The notes beneath the pieces are model-generated. The model saw nothing but the letters and a program-made list of their open reading frames with translations. It was not told the origin of the DNA and searched no databases. This document shows positions 6,971-48,175 of a DNA stretch of 64,000 bases, one piece after another (position 1 is the first letter of the stretch; each line of letters begins with the position of its first letter). Position numbers and translations under genes: made by a program. Where the stretch lies: assembly GCA_028015205.1 (NCBI GenBank), contig CM051521.1, forward strand, positions 88,574,513 through 88,638,512, written 5' to 3'. The stretch comes from Mytilisepta virgata. Its lineage: Eukaryota > Mollusca > Bivalvia > Mytilida > Mytilidae.

Positions 6971-7582
6971 ATGGCAAAACAGCTAAGCCTATCTGAATTA
7001 AAAACGAATGTTACAAACTCATACGCAAACGCAGTTTCCCCTAATAGAACCCCAGTTAAAGAAACTACTCAAGACGTGAATAGTAATACAACTCAGACCG
7101 TTACACCTGTTTGCGTTACACCTGAGCGCACCCCTTTACAGTTGTCTAGCCCATTGATCGCTATTAATAACCCGAAGTCCGATAACGCCACTGATCTTGA
7201 CTCTAATTCGAATACAAGTACTCAAGCCAATACATACAACATACCAGTTCGAACAAATGGAATTACGGAAAAAGTCAGTACGATCAACGAAGATTCATTC
7301 ACTGGTGTCACTAGAAACCGAACCGCACGTTATTACTTGTATGGCATCTCGATGAAATCAAGAAATGGTATTTGGAGCTATTTAACCGAACGCGGAGTCA
7401 CTGCAACTTTTTTGAGAATATTTGATCCGAAACATGACTATTCTCGTGTTTTCTCAGCTAAACTGAATGTTACCTAAGACAGTGTACAACTTATCGAAAC
7501 ACCAAGTTTTTGGCCGAAAGGTGTTTGTTGTAGGAAGTGGTTGAGTAATTGCGAATGGTACGGTGAGCAAGATAACAATTAA
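6971..7582 (+). pseudogene. LINE ORF1, one in-frame stop
   Basis: The frame from ATG 6,971 begins with a Ser/Thr/Pro/Asn-rich N-terminus, followed by a compact segment starting RYYLYGISMKSRNGIWSYL. A TAA at 7,475-7,477 interrupts it, but the same frame continues with sensible sequence, including WPKGVCCRKWLSN, to a second stop at 7,580-7,582. I infer a point mutation in an ORF of about 203 codons. ORF1 proteins of such LINEs bind the element RNA. No zinc knuckle or RRM core was recognised with confidence. ORF2 starts 73 bases downstream. Confidence 0.6.
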
Positions 7583-7655
7583 ACATTACATCATGATTTT
7601 TAAGCCTTATATTTTTTATTTGTTATTCCCAACTGTATTTATAATTTTGGTAACT

Positions 7656-10600
7656 ATGGGTTGTATCAATATTATGACCTGGAATGTAAGCGGCATAATG
7701 TCCTCAACTGTATGCCTGTCTAATCTACTTGAAATGTCAAATTGCGATATTTTTATTATAACTGAACACAAATTGAAACCAAACTCATTGCAATATTTAT
7801 CTTCTATAGATAATAGGTACAATTGTATTAGTAAAGCTGATGAATTACCAAACTGTTATAGAGCTTTTCATGGAAAAGGTGGTGTTGCATTTTTATACAA
7901 ATCTACACTTGAATTTTCGATAAGTGAAATAAATGATATTCAATCAAATCGTATTGTAAGCATTGAGTTAAACAGTCAAATACTGTACCTTTTTATATAT
8001 TTGGAACATATTTACCCCCAGATGACGACATAGATGCTTATAGAAATGAACTGAATCTTTTAGAATCATTGTTCTCATATTACATTAATTATGGTTACGT
8101 TATTATTGTAGGTGATTTAAATGCTAGCTGTAGTATACATAACACTGTTAATGTAAACAAGCCTAAATCAGTTTTACTTAGTAATTTTGTATCACAGTAT
8201 AACCTTCAGTATGCAGGTTTTGGTTTTCAATTCAAAGGGCCTAATTATACTTTTATAACAAAACAAACCATGTTAGATTATATTTTATTAGACAAAAGTG
8301 TATTGAGACAACTGATCTCTTATGAAATCCTTGATGAGGGGTCGATTAGCAGCAGGTCAGATCATCTACCCGTATCAGCTTTTTTTCGTTTAAACTGTAA
8401 TCCGCACTATGTTATAAATACGATGCTCCGTCTTCCTGCATGGCACAAGACCGAAGACTCTCTACTTTCGCAATACAATAAACATTTAAGCGATAACTTA
8501 GAACCATTAATTGACAGTATCGAGACTAACAATGAATCTGTTGATGAAATCTATAATCGCTTTGTTACAATTGTACATTTATCTAGTGACAATTCTATAC
8601 CAAAATATGGTTTTTACCCGAAACTTAAGCCCTACTGGACCGCTGAAGTCAAAGCTGCTCACAAACATGAAAGGGCAATGCGTCGAATCTGGTTACATGA
8701 AGGCAGACCAAGAGGAATGCTGCACGAATCCTACAGAAACTACAAAAAAGCTAAAAACAATTTCCGAAACGTTCAGCGATACGCATCCGAAAAGTTTTTG
8801 CAAAAATCATTAGATGATCTTAATGAAGCAGCAGACTGTGATATTCGTCTGTTTTGGAAGTTAATGAAACGTTCAAAGCCTACATCGAAACGAATTTACC
8901 CTGAAATAGTGTTCAATGACAAACTTGGTAATACTCCGGAAACAGTAGCTGAAGCTTTCAAGGAATATTTTACAGACTTGTATAGCGAAAGTGAAAATGA
9001 GAACTTTGACGCTGAAAACAAACGTAGTGTAGAAGAGACTTGTGAAAACATTCACAAATCTCTAGTGCGTGGTGACACTCTTCCAAGGTGGTTCTATCAC
9101 AGAGGATGAGGTAGCCAACATAGTTAAAAATCTTAAACGAAAAAAAGCAAGTGGTATTGATCGAATTCAACACGAAAATATTTTGTATGGTGGTAAAACT
9201 ATTATTAAATTTCTAACCTGTTTTTAAATACTATTGTTGAAACCGCTGAACTACCTACAGCTTGGAAGCATGGACTGATTGTTCCACTGTATAAAGGCAA
9301 TAACAAACCTAAATACTTACCGGATAGCTACAGGCCTATTAGCCTTCTTTCTTGTACTCTTAAAATATTTGAACGTGTCTTATACTCTCGAATTCAAGAT
9401 GTAGCTTCAAAAAACATAACCTTTCCCAGCCCTCAACAACAGGGGTTTCAAACAGGGCTCAGTTGTCTCACTGCATCATTTAATTTGCAAGAAACTGTGT
9501 ATTTTAACTTAGAATTATCAAGTAAAGTGTATGTAGCCTTTATGGATAGTCGAAAAGCCTTCGACACAGTATGGCGAAAGAGGTTATTAGTCAAATTAGA
9601 TAGATTAGGTATAAAAGATAAATTATGGCAATTGATAGATAACCTTCATAATAATACATATACTGCAATTATTGTAAATCAATGTCAGTCTGACTTTTTT
9701 CTTGTCAGTGAAGGTGTTCGACAAGAGGGTGTCCTTTCAGGTTTACTATATGTAGTGTTTATTAATGATTTGCTAACTGATCTTCAGAATGTAAACTCAA
9801 ATACTAGTGTTAATAATGTTGTAAGTTGTGCCCCATTATTAGCTGATGACATTGCTTGTATTAGTACAACCCCCGTTATGTTACAACGTATGATTGATGT
9901 CTGTTATAAGTTCTCACGAATGTGGCGATTTACATTTAACGCACAGAAGTCATACATTGTGATATTTACGCTTAACCGAGGTCGGCCACATCCAACTTGA
10001 ACTGGACTATAGGACAGGAGTGTATTCCTATTTCAGACAAGGTAACCCATCTTGGTATAATCTTAAATGCTTACATTAAGACTCACGAAAAAACTATTAA
10101 AGCCTGTCAAAAAGGAAAGAACTCGTTTTTTGCATTTAATGGAATTTCTTCGGATACAACAAACCCGAGTGTTCTTGTTAAATTATATTTCGCTGTCGTC
10201 CTTCCATCTACATTGCATGGTTGTGAACTTTGGTCTAACCTCAAAGGGCAAGTCTTGTCTACTCTTAACCGATTTCAACACCTGATAGTCAAAAACATTC
10301 TGAAACTCAAAATTACTACTCGTTCGGATATGTGCGAAAGTATTCTAGGCTTCCATCCTATCACAAGTGAGATTGATAAACGCACAACAAACATTTATGT
10401 TTGGACAACAAACATTTATCTAAAGCAATCTTCTTGAATCGATTATTTTCATATTTGATGGACCCCAGTCGTAAACATCTTGGTTATGTTCCTGATGTAG
10501 TAACTTTACTTCATAAATATAGATTACACGAATATCTACTTGATTTATTCAAGATGGACACTTCCCCTCAAAACAAGAATGGAAAAGAATAGTTAAACAG

Positions 10601-18365: not shown

Positions 18366-18492
18366 TTTTAAACATATTAATAAAATCTTAACGGATGTTC
18401 TGCAGTTAGTTCAAGTAGGTTTTGCTCTTCCTAATAAATCATCTCCATATATATTTTCTAAGGATCCTAACTTTGATTTCGTTTATTTTTAG

Positions 18493-19619
18493 ATGAAACA
18501 TCCCGATGGCGATGCTTGTCTTCGTGGAATAAAGCGTTTCCATTTGCCTTAGTCACGCTAGCTTTATTCTGCACTGTGATAAATTTCAAATGGCAAATAC
18601 CGTCCTCACTGCCGAAACATTACATAAGGTGCTCGGTGGATTACGATGACGGAAGAGACGTTTTATGGGGTGTTTATTACCGCAGTATGCATAAGGTGTT
18701 AGGAATTGAACCGTACAAAATGAAAAACACAAACAGCTGTCCACATGCTTTTTACAGTCGCCAAGAATTTAATCTGAAAAGAGCTAGACTGTATCCAGTC
18801 TTACGAACGACAAACTGCTTTCGACAATATAACACGTTATCAATGCTGAATAATTCACTTCCTGTTATAGTGACAGCCGTATCGTCTACACATTTGGAAG
18901 AATCCTTAGGAATGATACAAACTGTACATAAATCTATACGTGTATTATACCCATCAATTAAACTTATAATGTTCGATATTGGATTAAAGCCGTCTGAGTT
19001 ACGTCACTTGACGCAGTATTGTATGTGTGAAATTCGACGTTTTCCGTTTGAAAGCTACAAACCATATATATCAATTCTATTTAATTATATTTGGAAGCCA
19101 ATCATTATATACACTGTCTTACAAGAATATAGGTTTGTAATTTGGGCTGATTCGTCAATACATTTTTTCGGAAATACGACATCGTTTGACTCGTTTTTCG
19201 AAAGAACCAAATCTGTAGGCATATTGGCAAGAGAAATAGGTGGTTACCAAACGTCGGGTGTTACCAAATTAAACTCATTCTCATATTTTAACGAATTACC
19301 ATGTTTATATGACGAGAATTTAATGTTAGAGGCAAGTATGATTTCAATTTGGAATACAGATTTAGTTTGGAAATATGTTATTTTGCCTTGGATGTCATGT
19401 GCTTTAACCGAAGATTGCATGTCGACTGTAAATTATCACTCTCTGCGTTTGTGTAAAACCAGAGAACGACACGCATGTCATAGATTTGATCAATCTATTT
19501 TAAATATAATATTGATACGAATTTTTAACACTCACATGTCCTTAATAATGAACAATAATCTTTTACCTATATATAATGTCAGCAGATCTCAAAAAAGAAG
19601 CATTACTAACTTACCATAA
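18493..19619 (+). CDS. Type II membrane protein, DUF1647-like putative glycosyltransferase (main exon)
   Basis: A pyrimidine-rich acceptor (TTCGTTTATTTTTAG) ends at 18,492. The frame is open from there to TAA at 19,617, about 374 codons, with no good upstream ATG in this exon, so the start lies in an exon I cannot see. Near the N-terminus a basic stretch (SRWRC) precedes one hydrophobic helix (FPFALVTLALFCTVINF), the signature of a Golgi-type signal anchor. The lumenal part has VIVTAVSSTHLEESLGMIQ and later FNYIWKPIIIY and VIWADSSIHFF, which resemble the conserved blocks of metazoan DUF1647 proteins. In those the DSS segment sits where nucleotide-sugar transferases have their DxD. There are several cysteines and NxS/T sites (NNS, NTT). 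The frame is intact, so probably a real gene. Family assignment is from memory; the substrate is unknown. Confidence 0.65.
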
Positions 19620-25216: not shown

Positions 25217-25607
25217 AGTAACTCTCATCGAACTTGAGCCATCCATTATCTGGTATTTCCCGGCAATACCAGAAATTTGGACTAATTGTATCAATACCAC
25301 AGAACACAAAATGACATGTGATCGCTTCTAGACCAATGAAATTGTATATTTTTTATTGATATGCAATAAATTACAATATGGCCCTCAGTGTCATGAACTA
25401 TTTCTTAAATATTAATGTAATAACCCATATAATATAATGTTGTAAGCTAAAATATATTGAGCACTGCGAAAAATATTAAAAACCAAAATGTTCAGTAAAA
25501 AAATTTAAGTCAGCTTAATATTGCTAATAGTGGAATTTTATTTTCGCAAAGATCCTTCAGTCCCTTCTTTAATACGAGATTCCTCTGAACTTAAACTTCA
25601 AATTTTA

Positions 25608-26898
25608 ATCCTCCATGTAATCACAAAAACTGGACTTAAAAGCCTGACTCGCAGGACATTCCAACTTATTGGTAACAAGGGGTGTCGTACAAGCACTGGA
25701 CTTGGGCTTATTATCTCTTTCATTCTTCTTCTGGAGTCTAAAACAATCAGCCATCAGGTGACCATTTTTCTTACAATAAGCGCAAGTTAGTGACTTCTTC
25801 TCAAAAGTATCAAATTTTGGACCAGACATATTATAACTAGACGGACTCTTATTCTTTGCAACAGGCTTACTATCAGTACGCTCAGTGCTTTGATTTTTGT
25901 AATTTCCGCTTAAAATTTTGACCTTTGAAACTTCTTTTATGTGAAAGGGTATAATTATCGGAAACAACAGCTGCATCTTGCAATGTCTCAACAGTTTTGT
26001 TATCTAAATGTGTTTTTACGTCTAAATTAACACACTGCTTGAAATCTTCTAATAACATTAATTGTCCTCATTTATCAAAATTGTTATCGATTTTCTTTGA
26101 CGTAAGCCATTTATCAAATAGATCTTCTTTTTCCTTAGCAAATTCAACATGGGTTTGTGATTCAAACTTTTTATAAGACCTAAATTTCAGTCTATATGCT
26201 TCTGGCACTAGCCCATAAGCTTTCAAAACTTCCTGTTTAACAGTGTCATAATCAGAACTTTTTTCTGAAGAAAGTGCTGAGTAAATTTCAGCGGCCTTGC
26301 CCACAAAAACACTTTGCAGCATTGTAGCCCAATAAGGCTTTGGCCATTTCAAATTTTGAGCAATTTTCTCAAACTGTGGAAAAAATTTATCAACTGTTTT
26401 TTTCACAAAATTTGGGAACCAAACGTATATTTTTTGCTGCATCAAAATGTTCTGATTTTGACTCATATTTAGTGTTGCTTTTTACTTTGACCATTTCTAT
26501 TTTTATTTTCTCCATCTCTAACCTTTCTCTCATTGCAAGTTCTTCCTGTTTTTCTTCTTTTTCTTTTTATAATTCTTTTAATATAACTTCGTTTTCCAAT
26601 GGTTTTAATTTAAATTCATCTTCTTTTTCTAATTGTGTTAATTTAAGTTCATGTTCTAATTCAATCTGTTTTAATTTGAAAGCATCAACATTTTCGACCT
26701 TGAGGTCAAGAGCCTCTTCACCAAAAATTTCTGAGTCAACTAAATTGTCTATTACCAAATTTTTTATAATTTGTTTTCTCATAGATGTTCTAAAATCTAT
26801 TTTTAGATGTTTAGCAAGCAACGATAATTCTTCTTTCTTTAGTTTATCAAATCTTCCAGGTCTGGCGTTTTCAAAAATTTACCAGTATCAAATGCCAT
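25608..26898 (-). pseudogene. gag: LTR-retrotransposon gag polyprotein, frameshifted
   Basis: The minus-strand start MAFDTGKFLKTPDLEDL (from 26,898) is followed after a frameshift by LSLLAKHLKIDF and a Lys/Glu-rich coiled region. Then comes a capsid-like segment with WPKPYWATMLQSVFVGKAAE, YDTVKQEVLKAYGLVPEAYR and FRSYKKFESQTHVEFAKE. A single CCHC zinc knuckle, CAYCKKNGHLMADC, lies near 25,785. This is the order of a Gypsy-type gag: assembly domain, then nucleic-acid-binding knuckle. At least four frame breaks occur (about 26,840, 26,570, 26,450 and 26,070). No protease, RT or integrase follows downstream, so only the 5' part of an element remains. Confidence 0.75.
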
Positions 26899-33290: not shown

Positions 33291-33733
33291 CTTATTTACG
33301 GGGTGCTTCATAAAAGGAAATCTCAAACATTTTATATAACGTAGGAAGATAGCAAGGGTACCTGCATCATTTGCAAGTTCCAAGACTTCATGAAAGTTTA
33401 TTATCACAAGCAGTCATGACAGTATTAAAAAAAGCAAAGCAACTAAAATTCACAGAGGATACTCTAAATTTATATATGGTTATAGGGTGGGAATCTCAAA
33501 GTTTTCAAATTTATAAAGATAAACATATTTTGAGAGGCAGGACATAATACCCACTAGGTACCCCCATTATACATCAATGAATGTGTATACTAATAAGGAG
33601 AAAAAATACGGTTATAGGGTGGAGATCTCTACCATTTCCAGTTCGAGATCATATCGCAATCCATTTTTGTTTCCGAAATTTATCACTTTTTGTTCCTTCA
33701 GATAGCTGTTTATTATTAATAAATAAATATTAT
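33291..33733. other. Left flank of the 11-kb TIR element
   Basis: Holds two direct copies of GGTTATAGGGTGG followed by (A/G)ATCTC (about 33,480 and 33,612). No gene. Confidence 0.5.
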
Positions 33734-33739
33734 TAATTT
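33734..33739 (+). repeat. Target-site duplication, left copy
   Basis: TAATTT directly precedes the left TIR and is repeated exactly at 44,911-44,916 directly after the right TIR. Confidence 0.8.
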
Positions 33740-34016
33740 GGTCCGTGTATCACTTAACAATTCAATATTTCAAAAAGTTTTAGAATTTTACTTTTTTCAA
33801 TTTTTAATCAAAGTTTTAAAATATCAACATTCCAAAATTTTGAAATTTTGAAAATTTCACCAAATATCTAAAATTCTAAATTTCTAAAACACGTTTTAAA
33901 ATTCAATATTTTGGATTTTTAATCAAACTTTGAAAATACTAAACTGCATGTTCAGTTTTGATAATTTAGCCTTTTGAAAATTTGAATTTTTAAATTTTTG
34001 ATTAAAAAATTAAGAA
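33740..34016 (+). repeat. Left terminal inverted repeat
   Basis: 277 bp, AT-rich, begins GGTCCGTGTATCACTTAACA and ends GATTAAAAAATTAAGAA. It aligns end to end with the reverse complement of 44,635-44,910 with scattered substitutions and a few single-base indels, roughly nine in ten positions agreeing by eye. Confidence 0.85.
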
Positions 34017-34108
34017 TCGAAAATACTCATCTGGATCATTATTGCGTTTGACACTTTTTCGCGGTAATTTGTTACGCGCTAATATACTGCAGACGGCGTG
34101 AAAGAATC

Positions 34109-37100
34109 ATGGCGAAGAGCTTCATACTGCATAAAGATGCAAAGCGTCTTAATATTGGAGACAGTGACCTGACAACACAAAGAATATCAGCTATTTTCCA
34201 GGTGAATATTTTTCTTTTCAAGAATGTTTGGAAAGATTCTTTTAATAAGGATAAAGAAAGCCGGGAACAAGTTGTCTTAGAATAAAAAATACACAATATC
34301 ACTTTCATTCCTTCAAAATAATATATTAATCCCAAAGTCCGTGCTACAAACTGTGATTATCAATTAACGATAAATATAATGTATGGCATAGGCGGCGGAA
34401 CAAAATTGAAAGTGTGTGTGTGTGGGGGGGGGGGGGGGGGGGGGCTGGGGCAAAAAAAACCCCAAAACATTTTTACTCCGAATTTAGGGGGCAAAATCAT
34501 TGTTTTCTCCTGTTCCGACGCTTATGAATATAGAATTATGTAGCCTTTGTAATACCCAAATACCTAACTCTACAAAATCATTCTTTCTAACAAATTGACT
34601 GATTTTGTTATATTAACAACAGTTGAGCCCACATTAATTGCTTCAAACAAACTTTGAAAATAGAAAAAAACTTATAATAACTATGATGAGTGTTAGTGAC
34701 CATTTTTCAGAAATTGAAAGAGGACGGTATAAAAACATCAAAAGAGGCAACACAACATGTCAAAAATGTAATTTAAATGAGATAGAGGATAAAATATATT
34801 TGTTCTTCAATTGTCAAAAATATGACATTTTGAGGCAAGATTAGTTCAATAACCTCATTGAAATACAACCAAGCATTAATAATTATTTGCATTTTGAAAA
34901 ACTAAAACTTATTTTATCTTCTAACGATCTTATGCGGTTTGTTGCTCCATTTATAAAAAAAGTCCATAGTACTGAGGAAAGTGGACTCTACAGCTGCATA
35001 ATATATGTATTTGTTTACACATTTTTTTTTATGTATTTCTGTTCCACTTTAAATTTATGTTACTTTAATGTTTAAATAATGCTGTCAATCCTTCGGGTAT
35101 AAATTTGCATTTCAAATAAAGAATTATTATTTATAATAAACAAGCGGCATGTGCTTTTGAATCAGCTCCAATAGGAAAACACTGTCCCACATAGCCGCTA
35201 CCACCGCCTATAGAAAGTAGAATATACCGTGGGAGAACCATTGGAAAATCTGCGGCGCATGAGTTTTTTTAAAAAAAAGGTAGTTTGCTTCCCAATAAAT
35301 GCAGAAAAAATGCAAGGTTAGAAAAAACGTTTTATCAAGGTAATTGGCCATTTATATAATGACTACGTTTATATATACATACATGTACAGTCTATTGAAA
35401 AAGATATAAGCATTTATTTCTATAAAATTTCATTGTCTACATTAAAATCGCGCTTACAAAAATGAAAACTGTACAAGGTTGAACGTTTGTATCTGGTGTG
35501 GGTATTAAAATGTTATCAGAGAGAAATCTCGGGAATGAAAAAAAAGTGGACTTTCGGTAAGTGAAAAATAATATTAAATACATTTATACATTCAGGTCAA
35601 ACCAGACGGCCTTTACCTGGAAGACGATATTACTAGAGAAACATTTTTCCCGACCATAGAAATGTTTCCCATTAACAACATGCGTGACAAAGGGTCTTTT
35701 GCTGTGTGTGGAACACCCCTTGTGGCTACAGAATTCCCAAATTTTGGAGCTGCCAGTTTGCACTCGACTTTATGGTCTACTGGATCTGGACAAGCTGGAC
35801 CCTCTTCCTCATTTAGGCCACAGACTGCGTTCCAGCACCCTGTGAATGCACGTCGGACAAAGACCTTTCGCAAACAAGTACTTGTCGCCGATCTAAATGA
35901 CGGAGAGCTAAATGTGTACAGTAAGTATAAATTAATATCATCTTTATATTAATTGTAAGTCAGGATTGAAGTATTCTATACTATAGACAGCAAGAATATG
36001 AAGGAAAGTGATTGACTGGTCACTGTTTGCGTCCGTTCGTTTAGTTATGGTCATAGAAATAGTTAATATGTAAATATCATAGTGTGGAAACTGTGTATTT
36101 TACGATTTCATTTTAAGTGTAATAGCGGAGAATTTCGAATGTTGTCTCCCGCCTTTCGCGAAAGCGGGGACTATAGAATTCGGCTTTTCGTCTGTCCTTC
36201 CGTCAGTCCGTCCGGAATTTGGTTTCCGGCGCATAACTTCTAACTTCTGTTAGCCTTCATGGATTTAACTCAAACATATACAGGTGAAGGAAGACACCTT
36301 TTGATTTTGGGATGAGCTAGTAGGTCGAAGTTCAAAGTCACACGTGCTTAATAAAAATAGATTTTTTAATGTTGATTTGCAAGGCGAGAAACATGAGCAC
36401 TGCTCTTGTTAATTAATACACTTAAAGATGACTTTTTGTTTTCTGCAATAATTCTCAATTTTACATGCTTTTTATTTTCCAGCTTCAGTGCACGTAAATA
36501 TATCCGAAAATATGAGAGTAAAAGAAATTTCCAAGTCTATACAAGAAATCCTCAATACTGAAGAAACCTTTACCATATGTGACTCTAAAGGGATAGAGAT
36601 TACAGACAGCCAGGAAACGAGAGGTATTTTAAACTCATATTAAAACACGTTTGACATAACCCTTTGTACCTCATCATACATATTTTGGCCCTTGACACCG
36701 TTGTAAGGCTGAATTATCTGTCCCTATCCATTCTCCAATATTTTTCTACTTCACCTGCTCTCCCCAACCAATTTACGCTTTTTTTATCTTTATTTTTCCA
36801 ATTGATTGTTATCTAACTTATTCTCAACCTGATTGTGCAGGAAATATTTGCGATCACCATAAAAAATCAATCAATAATTTTGCTCAATTCCAAGACTCCT
36901 ATAATAAACTTTACAGCTCACTTTGTCCTAGCTAGATCAGGTCCCAGTTATATACAATATATGTACATTCTCAAAAAATATACGGTTTATTTGTACGATC
37001 CTTATGGGTAGAAATGCGAGGTTTACCAAACATTTCTCGCCCGTTTCGGGGCGAATACAAATAAACTTATATTTTATGATAATATACGTATTGCTTTTAT

Positions 37101-39333
37101 CCTGCAACACTAAATTCTTATCTGTTTGAGCTAAATGGTATTAAAATGGAACATTCATAGCTGATTTGAAGAAGGAACGTTTTTGGTGCGTAATCTAGGG
37201 AAACACGACGTCCTAAACACTGTGAACCAGAACGCAATGCAAAATATCGTTGAATGTGAGGACAAGGTACCAGGAGACTATATTGGACTACTGATCCAAT
37301 ATCGAAAGCAATATTGGGCAGGCTATATTTTCAGCTAAAGGCGTAGTTGCAGGATAGAATTAAGAACTGGTGAACTAAATGCCTCCGTACTAGTGGCGAG
37401 TCTTATATACATATATATTAAGCATTTGGTATGTATTTCAATGCGTAATCTCATCTGACATTATTGTCCAATTAAAGCATACATTTTTCAGTGAATGCAA
37501 GCCTTTAATAAAATTGTTATATGTTATAATTTTAGCGCTGGAGTTCTGGAAAACACCGAACAGAAAGGTACATGCGGTTAAATCTTCAGAGCTACCAAGA
37601 CTTGTTCACAAGTCAAAGAGGAAAAGGTTGGAAGTTATTTTAAAACTAGAAAAAACTGTGAACATAGCTCGAAAAGAAATACCCCACTCCCTAAAATAGG
37701 ATGGATGGGTTAAAGCCATGTTTTGCTATGCGGGGTTTGTCCTGACCATGAATGAAATACTTGTGACTGAACGCTAAGCAGCCAGCAATCAACCAATCAA
37801 AGTGGGGGTGTAAATCTCCTTAACATTATGATTTTTTAGAAACAATAAAGGATTACAAAGCATAGATTACTAGACGTTTCCAATATGGCTAAATTATTCA
37901 TCTATTTTTTACTAAACCTGGATTAATCAGCGAATGGGTCATTTACAACCCGCATCTTTTAACCGTGGACTTTTCAAGCATTTGACAATTGAACTGACCA
38001 ATGAAACTAAATCTCGCTCACTTCAATCACAATATCCGTATTTTTCATCTGACATTTCAAAAGCATTCAAAAGAAAATTGTCATTTTTTAATTGAAGCGA
38101 TTTATATTTATAGTGTGCAGTTTTGGAAAAGACCATAGCTAATTAAAATACGATCGTTGTAATCGGCTATTCTTTTGGTCCATAGTCTCTTTGGGTCTTT
38201 TAACATTTTGTTGGAGTCAATGATAGCCTCATTGGCACTGAGTTCACTTGTTACTCAATTAGGTTGAATTTAGTTATTTATTATAATAGTGGATTTTGAA
38301 ACAAATTATACCAACTGTCATCTTTTCGGGTTGCGATATCAGAGCCCGGGGCCTCAAAACCTGAGAATTTACTTAAGTCTGATCATATTCTTAACTTCCA
38401 TGGTTACATCTAAATACTTAGATGATATTGACTGAGAATGAAAATTTGAGTAAAGAAATGCTCAGCAAAAAGATTTCTTTATGTTATCAGAGGAAGGCAT
38501 TTTTAGCGTACTCCTTTTCGAACTCGACAATGTACCTATAATCAACCGTGAAGTTAAAGAAGAAGAAATATATGTGCTGGACCTTCCATCTGTAGCAACC
38601 TATTGGACCATTTTTCAGACATTTAAGATATTTTTCAAATAGTATTTGGAATGACTTCATTGGTCAAATTTCAATGCCTTGACTAGGCTACTAGGGAACT
38701 TCGTTCTTTTACATCTACAAAAGTCTAATTTAGAATTACTACTATATTGTAATACTGAAGTACAATGTATTTATTGGTTATGTATGAGGAAATGCATGTG
38801 AATAATTTTTTCTGATAAGACACTTATTTCACGCGATTATTTTAAAAATTTTCAGGTCAAACGTTCGAGATGAGAATTTAGAAAGTGAAAATCGCCTTAG
38901 GATAGAAGATCTCTTGGAAAACTTAGAAATAAACACAAAATTAGAGGTTCAAAATATGAGAGATGACCTGAAAGAAAGTATTGGTGAACAGACAGAGGAA
39001 ATTATGGGCTCAATCAGTCAAATCAAAACATCCCTTGCAAATGCCAGTACAAAACTTGAAAACCTTGATGAAAGGGTCAGCGATGTAAAGAACGAAACAT
39101 ATGTGACGTCAGCTTTGAGGGAGATTTTAAGATGTAAGGTGTGCACTCAAGTACCGGTAAATACAGTCATTGTTGCCGCCTGTTGTGGTCAAGTGTTGGG
39201 GTGCGGGACATGCGTTCAGAAATGCCTTGCAGAAAATGAATTTTGCATTTTGTGTAAAAACGAGAATGTTGTTGATAAAATAGTAGAACTTAAAGGCTTT
39301 CAGATGGTTCTGGATAAGTTCCAATCTACATAA
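34109..39333 (+). CDS. RING-like accessory protein of the TIR element, five exons (predicted)
   Basis: Exons by eye: 34,109-34,201, 35,596-35,920, 36,483-36,623, 37,536-37,626 and 38,856-39,333. They join in frame to 375 codons. The first three donors are good (CAG/GTGAAT, ACA/GTAAGT, GAG/GTATTT) and all four acceptors end in AG after a T-rich tract. The fourth donor (AAAAG/GTTGGA) is weak but is the only phase-compatible one I found; without it exon 4 ends at TAG 37,697. The N-terminal half starts MAKSFILHKDAKRLNIGD, continues with LYLEDDITRETFFP and has no fold I can name. Residues ~235-300 look coiled-coil. A RING/U-box-like cluster follows: C310-x2-C313, C326-C327, C333-x2-C336, C340, C347-x2-C350. 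The pattern is common to ubiquitin-ligase-type or structural zinc domains; the partner of an integrase in a mobile element suggests a role in transposition, but that is inference. Confidence 0.6.
34420..34447 (+). repeat. Poly(G) run in intron 1
   Basis: A GTGTGTG(T) segment runs into about 22 consecutive G. Low complexity only. Confidence 0.8.
34609..35135 (+). pseudogene. LINE 3' fragment inside intron 1
   Basis: Translation in two frames gives SDHFSEIERGRYKNIKRG, CQKCNLNEIEDKIYLFFNCQ (the cysteine motif of a LINE C-terminus) and, after a stop, LRLF-like and FIKKVHSTEESG. It ends with CAAATAAAGAATTATTATTT, a LINE-type 3' tail with a poly(A) signal. It is a 5'-truncated insertion younger than the host element, related to 4,438-5,420. 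Confidence 0.6.
36147..36410 (+). repeat. Hairpin plus GTCCGTCC-type dispersed repeat (intron 2)
   Basis: The hairpin CTCCCGCCTTTCGCGAAAGC with GGGGA closing the stem (36,146-36,170) is followed by CGTCTGTCCTTCCGTCAGTC and then GGTTTCCGGCGCATAACTTC. The architecture matches 14,363, 39,672 and (inverted) 42,588, with unrelated sequence in the stem. Confidence 0.6.
36975..37080. mobile_element. Hairpin element in intron 3
   Basis: Outer arms AAATATACGGTTTATTTGTA and ATACAAATAAACTTATATTT pair with a few mismatches. An inner pair AGAAATG / CATTTCT frames a short loop, followed by GCCCGTTTCGGGGC, itself a small hairpin. No ORF. Confidence 0.55.
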
Positions 39334-39552
39334 ATCACCTAATTTATGCATCAATGATTATTGGGGGACTAATTCACAGGACATGCAGAGATTGATATAA
39401 TTTTTCATGCAGTTGAGCTGAAAGGATTTCAGAGAATTATTAATATTACATTACTTATTTGAAAACATGTACAAGCAAGTTCATAGTACGACTCTTTAGA
39501 ATTCCAGAGTTGAATTTGTAGGTAGGTTAAACCGTTTGAACAGTTAGTTTAT

Positions 39553-39558
39553 AATAAA
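39553..39558 (+). promoter_or_regulatory. Candidate poly(A) signal of the RING-like gene
   Basis: AATAAA about 220 bases after the stop at 39,333, within TATAATAAAGT. Confidence 0.4.
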
Positions 39559-39671
39559 GTAATTGAGTTGAAAATATTTTATATGGTTTTGTTTTTTAGA
39601 CTACTTGCTTAAAACGCCATGTGAGCTTTTGTCATTATCTGGTGTCCACCTGTCGTCCATGTATCTCATAT

Positions 39672-40240
39672 TTATACCCCATGCAACAAAGTTGCAAGAG
39701 GTATAATTTGTTTTGACCCGTCAGTCCTATTATGCTTTCCAAACAATACTTTGAGAACGGATTGATGAAATGTCTTATAACATGTCACAAAGGTTTACAA
39801 AATACAGATCAGGTTGGAATTGGGGTTCGATCAAATTTCTTATTCTATAGAGTTATGGCCCTTGATTGACTGAAAATATGAAAAATGTACCTTTTACAGA
39901 CGAACACAGGAGGGATTGTGATATTTTCTTCAAACTTGCCACAAAGGCTAATGACTTTAAAATACAGATCACGTTCGAAGTTGGATTCGATCAAATTTCT
40001 TATTCTAGAGTTACGGCGCTTTACCGTTTCAAGACAATAACTTTAGAGCGGATTTTCTTCAAACTTGGCACAAAAATCGGTCGTCATATAGATGTGTCTT
40101 TTGATTAAAAAATTATATGACAGATAAATTAAAAAAAAAAAAAAAATATTTATTGCCATGCACAAAACTTATGTGCCATCTGTAGCAAAAGGGGAAGGTG
40201 GGACGCATGGGGTAGGTGAGCTTGCTCACTAAGGTTCTTT
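39672..40240 (+). repeat. Hairpin-led tandem-repeat element
   Basis: The hairpin TATACCCCATGCAAC-AAA-GTTGCAAGAGGTATA (39,672-39,704) is followed by TTTGACCCGTCAGTCC and then about three ~130-150-bp units that share CGATCAAATTTCTTATTCTA, AGAGTTATGGC/AGAGTTACGGC and ACTTGGCACAAA or ACTTGCCACAAA. A short frame at 39,866-40,108 is repeat-derived. Confidence 0.65.
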
Positions 40241-41109
40241 AATTTCATCTGTTTGAGAACCAATACTCAATTTAACCAAACTTTGCAGTTATAGTTCTTA
40301 CATAGTCATATGGAAGTTGGGTTATTTAGGTCCTGATTCGGCAATAAAACACGGCATACATAATGGTTGTGCTTATTAATTCATCATTATATCTAACCGG
40401 ATTTTTAACATTTTGATCTCGAGCACTGCTGATGAATTGTCAGTCAACGAAATGGCCATACAGTGCATCAAATTTAATTCGGTATTTTGTGATATATTTT
40501 ATTACTAAACATAGGTAATCATCGATTATAAAGCCCACCTCTCTCCCCAAATATATTTGTCGACAACAAATTTCAATCTACTGTGAAATGTGTTATTAAA
40601 GCTTAAAAAATTAGTACCAGTAACCTACCTTTACCTGGATAGGTCAAAGGTCATAGTTGAGATATGGCTCAGTTTAACTCCGACTTAACTTTAGCTAAAT
40701 CTTTCAAGATTCAAATATAGATCGCAGTGCCATTCTTTTCCCTGGATGCTAGATGCATCTTTTAAGTATATCAATCTTAAAATATAAGTCAGAGGGATCT
40801 ACATTTGCATTAATGCTGCCATGAAACGGGACTAGCTCATAGTAGGTGAACTATGACTAGGTCTGACCGAAACTAAACTAATCACACAAACGTGAAATTT
40901 AGGTCACATTGGTGCCTCTGTCCGGATGCTACCATGCAACCCTGGATTACATGACTCTAGAACTGCTATAAGTTTGACATACATTTAACTAGTCGGTAAA
41001 GTAGCCAATCAACCATTAAATATAGGTCACAATGTCGTACATTCTGTCTGAATGTTGTAAAGCTACCCAGTGAGTTGTATCTATGTGTTTCTAGTACACT
41101 TCATGTACA
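40241..41109. other. Central gap of the element, degraded repeats
   Basis: Loose repetition of TATAGGTCACA / TTAGGTCACATTGG and AACTTTAGCTAAA-type words suggests a decayed ~150-bp array. No gene. Confidence 0.35.
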
Positions 41110-41308
41110 GGGCCCAGTTGTTCAAATGTTAATCACTTTTTTCACTTTCCATTATTTCGATTGTTAAGTAATATTTCTGTACAAAATTTTGCATACACAC
41201 ACAAAGTCATAGGATTAACCCATCAGAAAATTTTCAGTCATTAGGCATAACCAAAGAAGTGAAAATTTGAAACCAGAAACTGTGGTTAACTTTTGAACAA
41301 CTGGACCC
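41110..41308. mobile_element. MITE-like element, 199 bp
   Basis: Terminal inverted repeats GGGCCCAGTTGTTCAAATGT at the left and, reverse-complemented, GGGTCCAGTTGTTCAAAAGT at the right. The following bases TAATCAC / TAACCAC also pair. No ORF and no certain target duplication. Confidence 0.7.
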
Positions 41309-41658
41309 AGATGTTTAGAAAGAGCTATCTCTAACCCAAACTTTAGACAGGTGTGGATGCCGATGGTACTCCAGCAGCAACGGAAGATGTCCGATTGTTA
41401 AACTGGATTCAATGGAAATGTAACAATATTATTTCCGTTATTTTTACATTAAAAAAAATAAGTTTCGGTATGCAACGACGGTCAAAAAACCGAATTTTCC
41501 GAGTGTAACCTTATAATATGGAGTTATTTCCCAATATGAAAAATAACAATATGCGATCATAAAATAAAAGTAATACTTTCTGGCGTATAAATGATTACTT
41601 CAAGTTTTATTTTATAAAATAAGCAAATATGGCAAATAAATAAAACCCATTGAACGAA

Positions 41659-42590
41659 AGGCTCCAAGGAGCCTCAATCGCTCACCTACTCGATTGTTTC
41701 CCATTGGATTTAAAAATCTTGTGGTTCTCAAGAAGAGGATCAAAATGTGAAAAGTAAACGGACATAAGGTGATGGTTTGTAACTTAAAACTATTAATGTA
41801 CGTAAAAGTAACAGTTGTACCTTTCTAGGTCGACATATTTTGACGACTACTTGAAGTGTAAATGATCATGATTCTTTATATATAAAGATAACTAGAAAAT
41901 GTGACTATAAGACACGGATGCCCTGTCCTAAAAACAACATGGGTTTTGTATATCCAGTTGTTAAAATGAAAAATGAAGTTTATAACGGGGCAAATATATG
42001 GTACAGAACTGTGTTGTACTTTAAAAAACCAAAATTGTTTTGTTTAAGTATCATTGACAACAAGATTTCTAAGATATTGGGCTAAGGCAGTATGGAATTG
42101 ATTTCTTTTATTATATGTTCTAATGAGCAGATTTAAAAAAAAACCTTTTCAAATGCAAGAAATATGAGGAAATGGACCTAAACATAAACCTTAAGCAAAG
42201 TCATTTGACCATGAAATGTAGGTCAATGTGACTCAAATATTGCTGAATAGCGTAGTACTATACAAGAGGACTGTAGTGGTGAAAAATCGTTGATATATAG
42301 ATAAGATTCTGATAAGTTGACCCTTATGTAGTAAAAATGAACCTAAACGCAAAACTTAACCAAAGTCACTGAAGCATAAATGTAGGTCATAGCGACCCAA
42401 GTGTTGCTGAACTGTGTTGTACTATACAAGAGGACTGTAGTGGTGAAATATCATTGCTATATTACTATAGGTTTCTGAGAAATGAGGCTTAACACAAAAC
42501 CTAAGCGAATCGGGACGTACGTACGGACGGGGGGACGGACGGACAAGGGCCATTCCATATGCCCCAGCCACATTCGTGGCGAGGCATAAA
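41659..42590 (-). repeat. Hairpin-flanked tandem-repeat element
   Basis: The left edge holds a perfect hairpin AGGCTCC-AA-GGAGCCT (41,659-41,674). The right edge has a hairpin TATGCCCCAGCCAC-ATTC-GTGGCGAGGCATA (42,558-42,588) next to ACGGACGGGGGGACGGACGG. Between them two clear ~150-bp units share GTACTATACAAGAGGACTGT and AGTGGTGAAA(A/T)ATC. On the minus strand the order is hairpin, GTCCGTCC tract, then tandem units, as in the other three members of this architecture. Confidence 0.7.
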
Positions 42591-42707
42591 AAGTGCTGTC
42601 GACCGCAGAAGACCAAATTTAATTAAAATTAGACTACCATAGACCTAATATTTCACACAAAGAAGAAGGTTTTCTAAAAATTGACTCCACAATAATTGCT
42701 AAGGTTT

Positions 42708-42713
42708 TTTATT
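42708..42713 (-). promoter_or_regulatory. Candidate poly(A) signal of the integrase gene
   Basis: AATAAA on the minus strand, about 95 bases after the stop codon at 42,807. Confidence 0.45.
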
Positions 42714-42806
42714 CATTCATATAACTAAAACCAAAATAAATTTCGAGTAACATATGTACATGTATCGATTTATTTCAAGATGAGAACAGAATTACGGTAT
42801 TTCATC

Positions 42807-44556
42807 TTAACCCGATAAGGCTGAAGTTATATTTATATATGTAATAAGTGCGTCCTTAAAATACAAAGGATTTCCATTTACGAGACAAAACATTATTGGA
42901 TTTATATCTGGAAAAACTTGACTGAACAAAAAGTCTCTCCTTTCTTTAAGAGCTTTGTCCGGCTCTAAGGGGTCAATCCCATATGGTCCCGGCATAGTAA
43001 GACTTCCCCCATCTTGTATATACTGTGCAGCAATGACTTCGGAAGGAGGAAAAAAGATAGGTGGCAATCTTTGTGTGTGTAGATTTGATGTCAACAATCT
43101 GTCTGGTATGCCTTTGCCTGGTATTGAATGTGCATTCCACGAAGGAATAAAGTGTTGAAACCCTATATTGCAACAAGCCATAGTTAGTGTTGACACGCAA
43201 AACTTGGTAACTGGATCATTCATATCAACTTCAAAATCGTCCGACATTTTTCTCAAAATACACTTTAAAGGATAATTGATTCTTGAATTTACTTCAACCC
43301 ATTTTCTTTCAGCAGCATGATTTTGTCGAGACATTGTTTGAATGTATTCTGGTCTGTTAGTATTCGTCCTGTGTTGCTTTAAATTTTCCTGGTGGTACAA
43401 ACAAAGATAGAACTCTTTTCCGAAATCAACTCTTATTTGGTCAAACAATCCATACTTCAAGCATGTTGCTCTGTATACATTATCATATATCAAAAGATTG
43501 TTCTTGATCGGCATAAGGCCAAAGGCGGTAATTTTTCCACTAAATCCATCGCTTGCCAAAACCTCAGTTACACCAAATTCTGTAAGTTTTTCATTTTGAT
43601 CCATATGTAATTTATGTCCGGCGTACTCGGCATAATATGCGGATGGGTTAGTATTTCTTTCAACGCCAGCTCTACGCTGTGATACATAAAACGGAGAAAT
43701 CTCAAGTAATGACGACCTTACACTCCTTTCGCCAAGTCTGTAACCTTTCGATCTCAGAAAACCGGTAACAAGTTTTCGTCCATAAGTTGGTCCGGTAACT
43801 TGTACAGCTGATGTAGCTATGTTTTTTATTTCCGAGTTTGACAATCTCCCGTAATCATATTTGTGGATATTTTTTTCTTGACAGAATTTGTATATGCTTG
43901 ACTGACTTGAACCTATAAAAGAAGAATGCACACAAGTATTCTATATGAAATTCATAATTATATCATATAAAAAAGTTGATAGGCTAAAATGTCTCGCCTG
44001 GCTCCCATAATCTAACCTGGTAATTCAAACTGTACATTTGACCACTGTGTCGAGTTTGTGAAAATGAGGTCAAGGTCAGGTGACACCTGTTAGACTGACA
44101 TGTACACCTTACAATGTATTCATAGACTAAATAATTTTAACCTTGAAAATGAGGTCATTGACAAGGACATTTGACATATGACGGACAGAACGTGCAACAT
44201 AAGATATCTACCGACGCTCCCTCTGAATGGCCTAATCGGACGTATGGACTTACCGGACCCAATGGTGTACTTCCTGTCGAATATGAAAATTTTGGACTAA
44301 TAAAAATATACCAAACTTTCCATGCTCGTGGCATTTTTGGGGTCTACAATCTGTTAATAATTAAATGATATTTTTAAAACCCAAAAACAGTTGGCCTCTC
44401 CACGAAACATTTCCAACACCAAGTACAGATTATTGAATACAAACCTTTTGTTATTTTGAAATGCATCTTTAATGTACTGGACACTTCCGCACAAGTATAT
44501 CCTTGCTGTTCGATCATAATTCGAATGGCATCTTCATGATTTTCCAATGCAGACAT
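42807..44556 (-). CDS. rve/DDE-type integrase (transposase) of the TIR element, two exons
   Basis: Exon 1 is 44,556-44,445 (ATG, 37 codons plus one base). The intron starts GTTTGT and ends CTTCTTTTATAG. Exon 2 is 43,912-42,807. Joined length is 405 codons without a break. Exon 1 plus the start of exon 2 resembles a helix-turn-helix (IRIMIEQQGYTCAEVSSTL ... SIYKFCQEKNIH). The catalytic core has D142 in HMDQNEK, D200 in IRVDFGKEF and E239 in NHAAERKWVE, spacings close to the D,D-35-E of retroviral integrases. SRQNHAAER is typical of the stand-alone integrase family seen in fish, cnidarians and molluscs. Conserved SWNAHSIPGKGIP lies further on. The enzyme would cut the TIR ends and join them to staggered target DNA. 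Its start is 79 bp inside the right TIR. No stop or frameshift, so it is young or under selection. Confidence 0.8.
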
Positions 44557-44634
44557 CTTGGATATTTTGCATTAAAAGCCCGCGGAAATTCCAGCAAGCG
44601 CAATCGTGATAAAGATTTTCACTTTTTGGGAGTC

Positions 44635-44910
44635 TTCTTAATTTTTAATCAAAAATTTAAAAATTCAAATTTTCAAAAAGCGAAATTATCAAAACTGAAC
44701 ATACAGTTTAGTATTTTCAAAGTTTGATTAAAAATCTAAAATATTAAATTTTAAAACGTGTTTTAAAATTTTAGAATTTTAGATATTTGGTGAAATTTTC
44801 AAAATTTCAAAATTTTGGAATGTTGATATTTTAAAACTTTGATTAAAAATTGAAAAAAGTAAAATTTTAAAACTTTTTAAAACATTGAATTGTTAAGTGA
44901 TACACGGACC
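44635..44910 (-). repeat. Right terminal inverted repeat
   Basis: Reverse complement of the left TIR, ending TGTTAAGTGATACACGGACC. The integrase start codon is 79 bases inside, so the TIR probably provides its promoter. Confidence 0.85.
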
Positions 44911-44916
44911 TAATTT
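44911..44916 (+). repeat. Target-site duplication, right copy
   Basis: TAATTT, identical to 33,734-33,739. Confidence 0.8.
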
Positions 44917-45918
44917 CTACACGGCAGTAGTTAATTCCCTAATGATTACTTTTGATAGCAACTTGCGTCCCCGATTTTTCTGATTTTTAACTTCTATCCC
45001 GATTATTTTGTGCAATTTTGACCTGTGATTCTATAGACTTGGACCTCTTTTCTTCTTCATTGGAGGGGGGGGGGGGGGGTATTCGAGATTTTCAGGATGT
45101 ATCATTACGGAAAGCATGTAATAAGTTCAAAATTGTACCCTGCGCACAACTGATGAGTTGAAATCGACGAAATTTGCACCACAGTTTATATCAAAGATTT
45201 TGTTAAATTCAGTAAAAAATATGACAAAAAATGAATGAGGTCATATATCTATATATTGATGCATACATGCCAATGCTCCGGATTTCTCCCTGAACCTCAG
45301 GAAATTTGACCCCATTACCGGGTTACTGGGTGAACTGTAATATTCTCCGGGATTTCTTAATTTCCCAGGGATTTTTTCAGTGCTTATACATCGTTTAATG
45401 GTTTAAAAAAAATATCTGTTTGATCTGATAAAAAACCGACGGTTATGAAACTTCATTGGTAATACTTAATTCACATTTTCGCACTCTAGAAACAGCTTCA
45501 AAATACCTTAAAATCGTTTTTGGGTGGGGGCTTAGCCCTGGAACCAACCCCCTGTCGATTTTATCAAGGATTCTAGCAAAAATATGTTGGCAAGTATATA
45601 GATGTATTAAAGAATATTCCATGAAATTTAAAATCTCGAAAATTGTCCATATTCAGATTCAGTATTCCCTAATTTTACCCCTTTTATGGAAGCTAAAGCT
45701 GTGCCATTGTTAACGTCATGCTATTGTGAACGTCACCGGACAATCGGCAGTAAAAAAAACAGGTTGGCACTGATGTATATATTTATGTGAATTTCCTGTG
45801 GCAGTGAAAGGGTTAATAAAATTGTTACCAAATATGAATTTTTTCTCAGAAGTATATTAAAAATCTGTCCTTAGATACTAGTAGTTTGGCTTTATCCTTT
45901 TGGTCATTTTGTGAATAG
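44917..45918. other. Right flank of the TIR element, no gene
   Basis: Poly(G) run at about 45,064-45,079. Degenerate repeats around CTCCGGGATTTCTT (45,345) and GTTACTGGG. The open frame at 45,456-45,713 has no domain. Confidence 0.4.
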
Positions 45919-48175
45919 AGGACCATGATGTAGTCCATCCAACAAATGTTTCACTTGAAGATCCAACTTTTATTGAGGTAACTGGACCTGTCAATTTTGC
46001 AGCAAACACGTCTATATTGGATTACTATTTGAAGTTTTTAGAGATTCCACACAATAGTATTTTAGACATTTTAGTAACTGAGAAAAACAGATATGCAGAA
46101 CAATGTATAGCTGCTAGAACAAGACCGCCGAGAGTGTTACCAAAATATGCTAGATGTAGGAATTGGACACCCGTAAATCGCCAAGAAATGCTCGCGTTTA
46201 TCGGTTTGCTGCTTACAATGGGAGTTGTCAAAAAGCCAACATATGAATCATATTGGGAGAAAAATGCACGGTCTTGGTCCATGGACACACCAAGTTTTTC
46301 TCAAGTAATGTCACGGAATAGTTTCCAAGCTATCCTTCAGTTTTTACACTGCAATGATAATTCCACTGCTATTCCACATGATCAAGCAGGATACGATCCA
46401 CTTCACAAAATAGGTCCTGTTATCAACATTCTCAATGAAGCCTCAAAAAAGTTTCCCGTTTTGGAGAAAAATAAAAACCCTGAAAGAAAAATATTGTTTT
46501 ACTCTCAGTTGGCACTATAGGATATATAATGGTGTTTTCGAGTTGTAACAAAAATAACTGTTTTTCGTCTTAAGTCGAGAAAAAAGGTTTGTAGTGAGGA
46601 AAAATCAATGGTACCTCCCTTCCCCCTACCCAGAAAATCAAATGGTAATGCCTAAATACTGCGATGTACAGAACGAACAAAATTAGTGTATTATTTTTCG
46701 TTTCTTTTTATTTAAATTCTGGCATTGAATGAGATGTCAATTAATTACATATCAATACGTGACACTATGATAAATAAAATTTATTAAATTTATTATTATT
46801 TATTACAATAAATCGTAATAAATTACATTGGCATAAAAATAGATACTCACCTTAAGAAATTTCTGATACATATTGACAATGAAATAAAATTTATTGTCAT
46901 TGTGGATTTATTTTACACAATGTGTCCGCCAACATTAACATTGTATTTTTTCCGACCGATTACATCAAAATGTGTGTGTTGATGAACGGATGGTAGGATT
47001 TAAGGGGAGGCACCAGCTGAAAGAATATTATCGAACAAGAAAGCTCATAAGTGGGGTATAAAGTTATGGGTACTGGCAGATTCAACTACCGGCTACACAC
47101 ACCACATAAATGTTTACAAAGGAAGGAGGAATGAACACAGGAGTCCAAATGGACAGGTACTATCTGTAAAATATTTGAACAAGCTCTTTTTGAATCGTTA
47201 ATTAATTAATGAAATTGTTGTCAATACAAATAAAACAAATTCTAATTTATGGGGTGAATTTGATGACATTTTGCAAATCTAATAATGTACATGTATCACT
47301 TATTAAAATGGGTCCGATGTTATCAAAGATTTAATACATTTTTGTTGGTATTGTTTAAAACAGACGAAAAAGATGATCAAAATATACAAGATCAACCTTT
47401 AATGGGGCCTCTATTATCGTTTGTTTTATGTGCTGATGGTAAAATGACAATCTCCTTACATTTTGTATAAATTTCAGGGATATCAAGTGTGGATTTAATG
47501 GCCCCGCACTTACATAAGGAGCACCATGTTACCATAGATAGCTTCTTCACTAGCCCCAAGCTTGTACATGACCTGAAGGACAATGATACGTTTTGTACAG
47601 GAACTGTAATCAAAAGTAGAAAAGGAATGCCGCAAAGTTTCAGAAATGCCCGCTTACCAAAAGGGGAGATGATTGTTAAATCGCAAGGTCCAGTTATGGC
47701 AATCCTCTGGTCCGATCGTCGTCTGGTAACAGTTCTTACATCCACAGGTGATGCGAGGTATGTTTTACAATGATTTCGTTTCTATTCTATATTATTGCAA
47801 GAATTTAAAGCTATTTCATTTCCTACAATGCTTGGTCACCTTTATGTGAATTTAATTTGAAAAAGTTCAATTGTTGAAAAAATGAACATGAACATTTAAA
47901 TATTTGTAAAGGTATTACATTTGTCCATTTGTTCATCTCGCATTTTATATGCGTTTGTGTTTGTTGTATGTAAAATTCAAATAGTCCACATATGCAAATT
48001 GTATATTTGAATTTCAGTAACGTTGACACTACAAACAGCAGAGGGACAGACATATCTATGACCAACAGCAGTGCAGAGGTAGAATTACACAATGGGTGGA
48101 GTAGATGTGGGGGATCAGATGATTCAGCCATTTGAACCTCAGTTCAAGAGTTTAAAGATGTGGATAAAGATGCTA
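45919..48175 (+). pseudogene. piggyBac-type transposase gene, broken
   Basis: A first block (45,919-46,519), after a plausible acceptor AATAG, translates to sequence with FAANTSILDYYLKFL, MLAFIGLLLTMGVVKKPTYE and YWEKNARSW, the N-terminal part of the piggyBac DDE family. After an AT-rich gap, 46,965-47,165 gives VDERMVGFKGRHQLKEY (the conserved 'E-x-M-x-x-F-K-G-R' region) with a frameshift. A third block (47,477-47,773) has VDLMAPHLHKEHHVTIDSFF and SPKLVHDLKDNDTFCTGTV. A fourth (48,085-48,175) has MGGVDVGDQM. Order matches the family. Gaps may be introns or insertions, but the internal frameshift near 47,060 argues for a pseudogene. The cysteine-rich C-terminus was not found. Confidence 0.75.

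What the first reader, a model, noticed from the sequence alone, without database searches (positions are those of the whole stretch)
33734..44916. Apparently complete 11.2-kb integrase transposon with long TIRs and an exact 6-bp target duplication
The ends GGTCCGTGTATCACTTAACA match in inverted orientation over ~276 bp and are flanked by TAATTT on both sides. It holds an unbroken spliced DDE integrase and a second spliced gene. Seen directly: TIRs, duplication, open exons. Known: retroviral-type integrases make 4-6-bp duplications; IS3EU-type eukaryotic transposons are recalled as using 6 bp. Inference: this is a recently active member, with its accessory gene, of a little-studied class.
Basis: partly seen in the sequence, partly recalled or inferred. 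Interest (0 to 1): 0.9.

Follow-up and report, generated by a model that had tools for sequence, protein, structure and literature searches.

The report
Complete mussel integrase transposon with partner gene
An 11-kilobase jumping gene in a mussel-like genome, with an intact cutting enzyme, a partner gene also found in fish, and direct evidence of how it inserted, belongs to a poorly studied branch of transposons related to retrovirus integrases.

Summary
33740-44910 (11,171 bp) is a DNA transposon with 269-bp inverted ends (259/269 identical) ending GGTCC..GGACC, flanked by TAATTT. The insertion is shown directly: the joined flanks occur elsewhere in the genome, and 7 of 7 such empty sites read have one TAATTT. 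The ends recur genome-wide (222 places, control 1), with other 6-bp duplications. The minus-strand gene (2 exons, 405 aa) is a DD38E integrase-type transposase, the only copy of its family detected in the 1.03-Gb assembly; shorter copies sharing its ends (1.4-3.9 kb in those read) are presumably mobilised in trans. The plus-strand gene (5 exons, 375 aa) encodes a coiled-coil protein with an eight-cysteine RING-like end. It sits behind the same end in decayed copies and has relatives in Mytilus, Solemya and bony fish; one fish gene model fuses both genes. The nearest known kind is IS3EU/GingerRoot, but the published TA..TA termini are not met, and two other families of the same genome match the integrase profile far better, one starting TATGG. 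I call it a new variant of a known kind. That the partner is an E3-type helper is inference. Whether Repbase already holds such a family could not be checked.

The parts
33734..33739 (.). left target site duplication TAATTT
   Evidence: one copy in 7 of 7 empty sites read
33740..34008 (+). left terminal inverted repeat, GGTCCGTGTATCAC...
   Evidence: 259/269 identical to the right arm
34109..34201 (+). accessory gene exon 1 (start ATG)
   Evidence: at nearly the same distance from the end in a decayed copy, L063
35422..35480 (+). 59-bp segment in intron 1 shared with the 19 non-autonomous copies examined
35596..35920 (+). accessory gene exon 2
36483..36623 (+). accessory gene exon 3
37536..37626 (+). 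accessory gene exon 4
38856..39333 (+). accessory gene exon 5: coiled coil, then RING-like zinc finger, stop
39133..39255 (+). RING-like region, eight conserved cysteines (residues 310, 313, 326, 327, 333, 336, 347, 350)
42807..43912 (-). transposase exon 2, with the DDE core
   Evidence: model of a 61% identical relative
43308..43601 (-). catalytic triad span D142 - D200 - E239 (DD38E)
44445..44556 (-). transposase exon 1 (start ATG)
   Evidence: similar N-terminus in M. edulis P0008
44642..44910 (-). right terminal inverted repeat, ...GTGATACACGGACC
44911..44916 (.). right target site duplication TAATTT

Best explanation
It is an autonomous, probably cut-and-paste DNA transposon of an animal lineage related to IS3EU/GingerRoot. 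Steps: (1) the 405-aa integrase-like transposase binds the 269-bp ends (inferred); (2) it uses an RNase-H DDE site (residues seen in the sequence, fold from a model of a close relative) to join the GG..CC ends to target strands 6 bp apart, giving a 6-bp duplication (product shown by empty sites; chemistry inferred); (3) it supplies this activity in trans to non-autonomous copies sharing the ends (inferred); (4) the 375-aa second protein, a coiled-coil protein with a RING-like C-terminus, is a resident gene of the family (shown) and most likely a ubiquitin-ligase-type helper that either remodels the transposition complex or counters a host repressor (inferred, weak).
Against: Non-autonomous ends are on average only 88-91% identical to this element's ends and form another cluster, so another, lost or unassembled, autonomous relative may have driven them. 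The RING assignment is below Pfam cut-offs, the best PDB matches are weak and mixed with one to an unrelated enzyme elsewhere in the protein, E 0.019, and the accessory model was poor, pLDDT 43. dN/dS against decayed paralogues was 0.57 pooled, with exon 2 at 1.23, so selection is not proven. Accessory relatives number 6 and 12 in two searches against 116 for the transposase: many relatives may lack the gene, or it may be unannotated. No transcript evidence.
Confidence: 0.78

Rival explanations
1. The second gene is a passenger: a host gene caught by an ancestor, carried along without a role in transposition.
For: Kojima 2025 shows fungal IS3EU and other superfamilies carrying exchanged TET genes (passages); pooled dN/dS of 0.57 is not strongly constrained; 6 and 12 relatives against 116.
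Against: 40% identical to a fish protein over 98% of the length; 6 of 11 named species with an accessory relative are also among the transposase hits; same place behind the end in a decayed copy; fused model in Alosa.
Confidence: 0.25
2. This copy is a bystander: the dispersed non-autonomous copies were mobilised by a different autonomous relative, now lost or not assembled.
For: Their ends cluster apart from this element's ends (means 88-91%), and they have one T-type and one A-type end where this copy has two T-type ends; an A-type end stands before accessory exon 1 at C6:45656424.
Against: No other transposase of the family detected in the assembly, 61 of 61 candidates scored; the terminal 20 bases recur at 222 places with at most 2 mismatches.
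Confidence: 0.4
3. Two unrelated MITE insertions happen to bracket the genes.
For: Short copies with such ends are common.
Against: Empty sites with one TAATTT and continuous flanks, 7 of 7 read: the 11.2 kb came in as one insertion.
Confidence: 0.01
4. The element is an ordinary, already catalogued IS3EU or GingerRoot family.
For: 6-bp duplication (definition) and membership of the Pfam family PF24764; GingerRoot relatives in fish and corals are recalled from memory.
Against: Ends begin GG, not TA, at 44 of 45 ends read (definition); deep split from two other families of the same genome that fit the profile with 252-284 bits against 46.
Confidence: 0.3

Closest known systems
IS3EU (Repbase superfamily; Kojima and Bao 2023, PMC10045372, passages read)
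   Same: Integrase-like DDE transposase without HHCC motif, 6-bp duplications, inverted ends; a fungal member, Styx, also carries extra genes (PMC10853768, passages and part 1 of 2 of section 13 read)
   Different: Published termini TA..TA; here GGTCC..GGACC. Transposase forms a separate deep clade from two better-matching families of the same genome. RING-like partner instead of the alpha-kinase, TET, GATA, CCHC or DUF3577 proteins named in those papers
GingerRoot (its paper is not held; features from PMC10045372 passages and recall)
   Same: 6-bp duplication, integrase-related transposase; relatives in animals (recalled, and supposed)
   Different: Termini mostly TA..TA, occasionally TG..CA; inverted ends of 100-150 bp (recalled) against 269
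IS481EU
   Same: Integrase-type DDE transposase in a DNA transposon
   Different: Duplications of about 4, 15 or 25 bp and TNT..AYA ends in T. vaginalis
Transib/RAG (recalled)
   Same: DDE recombinase together with a RING domain
   Different: In RAG1 the RING is in the recombinase itself; different transposase family and 5-bp duplications (all recalled)

Membership tests
IS3EU | integrase-type DDE transposase of Pfam PF24764 (equation of PF24764 with IS3EU is inference) | tested here: met
   45.6 bits, cut-off 26
IS3EU | 6-bp target site duplication | tested here: met
   window and 13 of 23 end pairings exact, 4 with 5 of 6; empty sites
IS3EU | TA..TA termini (TAYGG..CCRTA in Pucciniales fungi) | tested here: not met
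   GGTCC..GGACC in the window; of 45 ends in the pairings, 44 begin GG and 42 begin GGTCC; definitions
IS3EU | no HHCC motif before the core | tested here: met
   no C-x2-C in residues 1-140 of the protein (read by eye)
IS3EU | transposase nests among Repbase IS3EU families | not testable with these tools
   Repbase not held; separate clade from two local families and a fragment, 100/100
GingerRoot | termini TA..TA or TG..CA | tested here: not met
   definition; ends
Ginger1/Ginger2 | 4-bp (4-5-bp) duplication | tested here: not met
   6 bp; definition
IS481EU | duplications of about 4, 15 or 25 bp | tested here: not met
   6 bp; definition
Polinton/Maverick | DNA polymerase B gene (recalled) | tested here: inconclusive
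   within the element only exons of the two genes give stop-to-stop frames of 130 aa or more; no direct search made
RING E3 ligase (accessory protein) | RING zinc ligands and fold | tested here: inconclusive
   eight conserved cysteines, weak matches to RBBP6 and MDM2, below Pfam cut-offs, no good model

The most novel reading that the evidence does not exclude
A distinct superfamily-level animal lineage of integrase transposons, defined by GG..CC ends, 6-bp duplications and a DD38E transposase, whose autonomous members carry a conserved transposon-encoded RING-type partner shared between bivalves and fish; the partner is part of the transposition machinery, to my knowledge the first integrase-class transposon with its own ubiquitin ligase.
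Probability: 0.3. Interest if true: 0.72.

Novelty: new variant of a known kind. Interest (0 to 1): 0.56.

Why it matters
It gives a complete, intact autonomous copy (the only one detected in its assembly), its ends, its insertion product and a partner gene, in a class for which I found few descriptions of animal members in the papers I could search. That makes direct tests possible: does the transposase move these ends, and what does a RING-like partner do for an integrase-type transposon? Transposase relatives reach fish, sponges and cnidarians, so the answer could apply widely.

Tried and rejected
MITE coincidence: rejected by the empty sites. Age from divergence of the two inverted ends (3.7%): rejected as a clock, because in other copies the two ends differ by type (within-element mean identity 90.2%). 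Non-autonomous copies as simple deletion derivatives of this element: not supported; in the copies read only the ends and a 59-bp segment match. Viral contigs with the two M. coruscus proteins: no relatives. NCBIfam: nothing useful for the P0009 transposase or a fish accessory protein. AlphaFold of the accessory protein: poor.

Literature searches: IS3EU, 35 papers, 20 listed; IS3EU with mussel, 3; with RING finger, 0; with accessory and transposase, 2; with Mytilus, 2; with fish, terminal inverted repeat and integrase, 2; GingerRoot with transposon, 4; DNA transposon with RING finger and 6-bp TSD, 0; transposon-encoded, RING finger, DNA transposon, E3 ligase, at least three of them, 22, of which 20 listed; PF24764, 1, on Micrococcus, listing only. 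I opened passages of four papers (PMC10045372, PMC12730594, PMC10853768, PMC9587614) and part of one section of PMC10853768; all others were seen as listings. PMC9587614 names IS3EU once, in a list of superfamilies. The library lacks most subscription papers and Repbase was not searchable, so absence from print is not shown. Right end and duplication of the TATGG family: not reached within 14.1 kb; the pattern search for it did not complete.

Dropped from the count: of 29 loci fetched (L019, L023, L024, L042, L045, L046, L049, L050) lacked one or both ends in the stretch, as did one nested end in L022. Against my reading in that call: 4 of 23 pairings (L009 twice, L010, L011, one array on C13) show no duplication, and L026 and L047 show one only after an offset of 6 or 1 bases. 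The outer element of L022 was not among the 19 and showed no 59-bp match.
Full report
OBSERVATION. The inverted ends are 33740-34008 and 44642-44910, 259 of 269 bases identical without gaps. The terminal 20-mer has two matches in the window, both exact, with up to 3 mismatches allowed, against a mean of 0.00 in 100 shuffles. TAATTT abuts both ends. The element is 11,171 bp.

EMPTY SITES. I joined 140 bases of left flank (with one TAATTT) to 144 bases of right flank and searched the window's own 1.03-Gb genome (40 of 67 candidates scored, so counts are lower bounds). The window locus matches as two halves. Of 41 rows, 38 at other places span the junction, 31 of them over nearly the whole query. 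I read seven of these places: 7 of 7 have one TAATTT and continuous flanks, 95.4-98.2% identical over the aligned bases. The element thus inserted, as one 11.2-kb piece, into a copy of another dispersed repeat and duplicated 6 bp. The host copy is about 2% from the nearest relatives read, so the insertion is probably younger than that repeat's spread.

OTHER COPIES. The left end found 64 matches in the genome, 40 of 269 candidates being scored; besides this element's two ends, 39 nearly full-length ends are 88-90% identical. The pattern GGTCCGTGTAWCACTTAACA with up to 2 mismatches has 117 forward and 105 reverse places, against 0 and 1 for the reversed control. Of 29 loci fetched, 21 gave 23 end pairings: 13 with an exact 6-bp duplication (12 different sequences), 4 with 5 of 6, 2 exact after an offset, and 4 without, in one array on C13. 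Matches between left and right flanks are 16-20 of 23 at the six duplication positions and 0-10 of 23 outside. Of the 45 ends, 44 begin GG and 42 begin GGTCC. These copies are 1.4-3.9 kb; in the sequence read they share with the window element only the ends and a 59-bp segment, the latter in 19 of 19 tested but not seen in the outer element of L022. Pairs at different sites are up to 99.4% identical over 2.1 kb (L014, L015), the median of 171 pairs being 89.6%: some moved recently.

ACCESSORY GENE. Plus strand, five exons, canonical borders, 375 aa. First search: 6 relatives, in three Mytilus species (77-82%), two Leuciscus fish (40% and 32%) and Solemya (32%). Profile search: 12, adding two Alosa species, Misgurnus, Sardina, Sinocyclocheilus and two metagenomic proteins (only 7994 candidates scored). 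Of the 11 named species, 6 (M. coruscus, M. edulis, L. chuanchicus, both Alosa, Sardina) are also among the transposase hits. A fish gene model, P0044 of Alosa pseudoharengus, contains accessory residues followed by the integrase: 1 of 116 transposase hits, each compared with three accessory proteins. In the window's genome decayed accessory copies lie at C14:80.46, 80.63 and 59.4 Mb, with fragments on C6 and C4 (39 of 39 candidates scored). At C14:80464240 the same end precedes exon 1 at nearly the same distance; coordinates show an end before exon 1 at C14:80624705 and C6:45656424 too. In 6.2 kb read from C14:80470600 the match to the window element stops at window position 40640, and one search found no transposase there. 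I take the gene to be a resident of this family. Its C-terminus has eight conserved cysteines in RING-like order. Best profile matches to solved structures are the RINGs of RBBP6 (E 0.0033) and MDM2 (E 0.016); Pfam matches are below cut-off. The model, of M. coruscus P0001, shows only a long helix with any confidence. dN/dS against decayed exons: 0.32, 1.23, 0.69, 0.35, pooled 0.57, which is consistent with, but not proof of, past constraint.

PLACE AMONG KNOWN KINDS. Passages of PMC10045372 state that complete IS3EU families always have TA..TA termini and usually 6-bp duplications, GingerRoot 6 bp and mostly TA..TA. PMC12730594 gives TAYGG..CCRTA for IS3EU of Pucciniales fungi (passages). Here the ends are GG..CC. 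In the same genome two other families have transposases with 284 and 252 bits to PF24764. One of them begins TATGG in 4 of 4 copies and has IS481 and IS3 matches below their cut-offs: by its left terminus it is the canonical type, though its right end and duplication were not reached. Profile comparison relates the window group to these families (E 3e-25, 17% identity, 285 columns), and a tree of 30 rows separates 27 from 3 of them with 100/100 support and a very long branch. So it works like an IS3EU element and is related to it, but I do not file it as a member. Styx (PMC10853768, passages and part 1 of 2 of section 13) is a precedent of an active, multi-gene IS3EU element with 6-bp duplications.

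ORGANISM. Not named. The 80-90% identity to Mytilus proteins points to a mussel-like bivalve; this is inference.

MECHANISM. Shown: ends, 6-bp duplication, insertion as a unit, intact DDE reading frame, partner gene behind the same end in other copies. Inferred: end binding, strand transfer at 6-bp stagger, trans-mobilisation of the short copies, helper role of the partner through a RING-like domain (remodelling of the complex, by analogy recalled from phage Mu and ClpX, or removal of a host repressor). Against: the short copies' ends cluster apart from this element's, so another source may have driven them.

VERDICT. A confirmed, complete and well delimited element of a little-studied class; unusual termini and a conserved partner make it a new variant. 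Whether it is catalogued in Repbase is unknown.

Noticed in passing
L055-L062 (G000 C9:4.06 Mb, C11:82.15 Mb): A second integrase transposon family, transposase with a SAM domain, left end TATGG in 4 of 4 copies, copies 99.4-99.6% identical, two of them alike over at least 14.1 kb: apparently a young, very large IS3EU-type element.
   Followed up: partly
L051-L054 (C6 twice, C7, C92): A third PF24764 family: four copies alike at 99.6-99.8% over about 10 kb, ends not reached.
   Followed up: partly
35422-35480: A 59-bp stretch in intron 1 of the accessory gene recurs in 19 of 19 non-autonomous copies tested at 350-407 nt from one end, though nothing else inside matched: a deletion relic or an internal binding site.
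   Followed up: partly
33600-33739 and 44917-45060: The target is itself a dispersed repeat with 38 other junction-spanning places listed; not identified.
   Followed up: partly
34638-35130: Frames with a cysteine-containing stretch like the tail of a LINE (recalled); 34937-35129 matches a place outside the element in L026 at 71%; Pfam gave nothing for the one frame tested. Perhaps a LINE piece nested in intron 1.
   Followed up: partly
45915-46517: PiggyBac-type transposase fragment (DDE_Tnp_1_7, E 1.3e-23) about 1 kb right of the element.
   Followed up: no
7545-10437: LINE-like frames; endonuclease and reverse transcriptase domains found in 7967-9997.
   Followed up: no
18477-19616: Open frame with DUF1647 (E 1.5e-12).
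   Followed up: no
25605-26481: Minus-strand frames with zinc-knuckle and SCAN matches below cut-off, perhaps gag-like.
   Followed up: no
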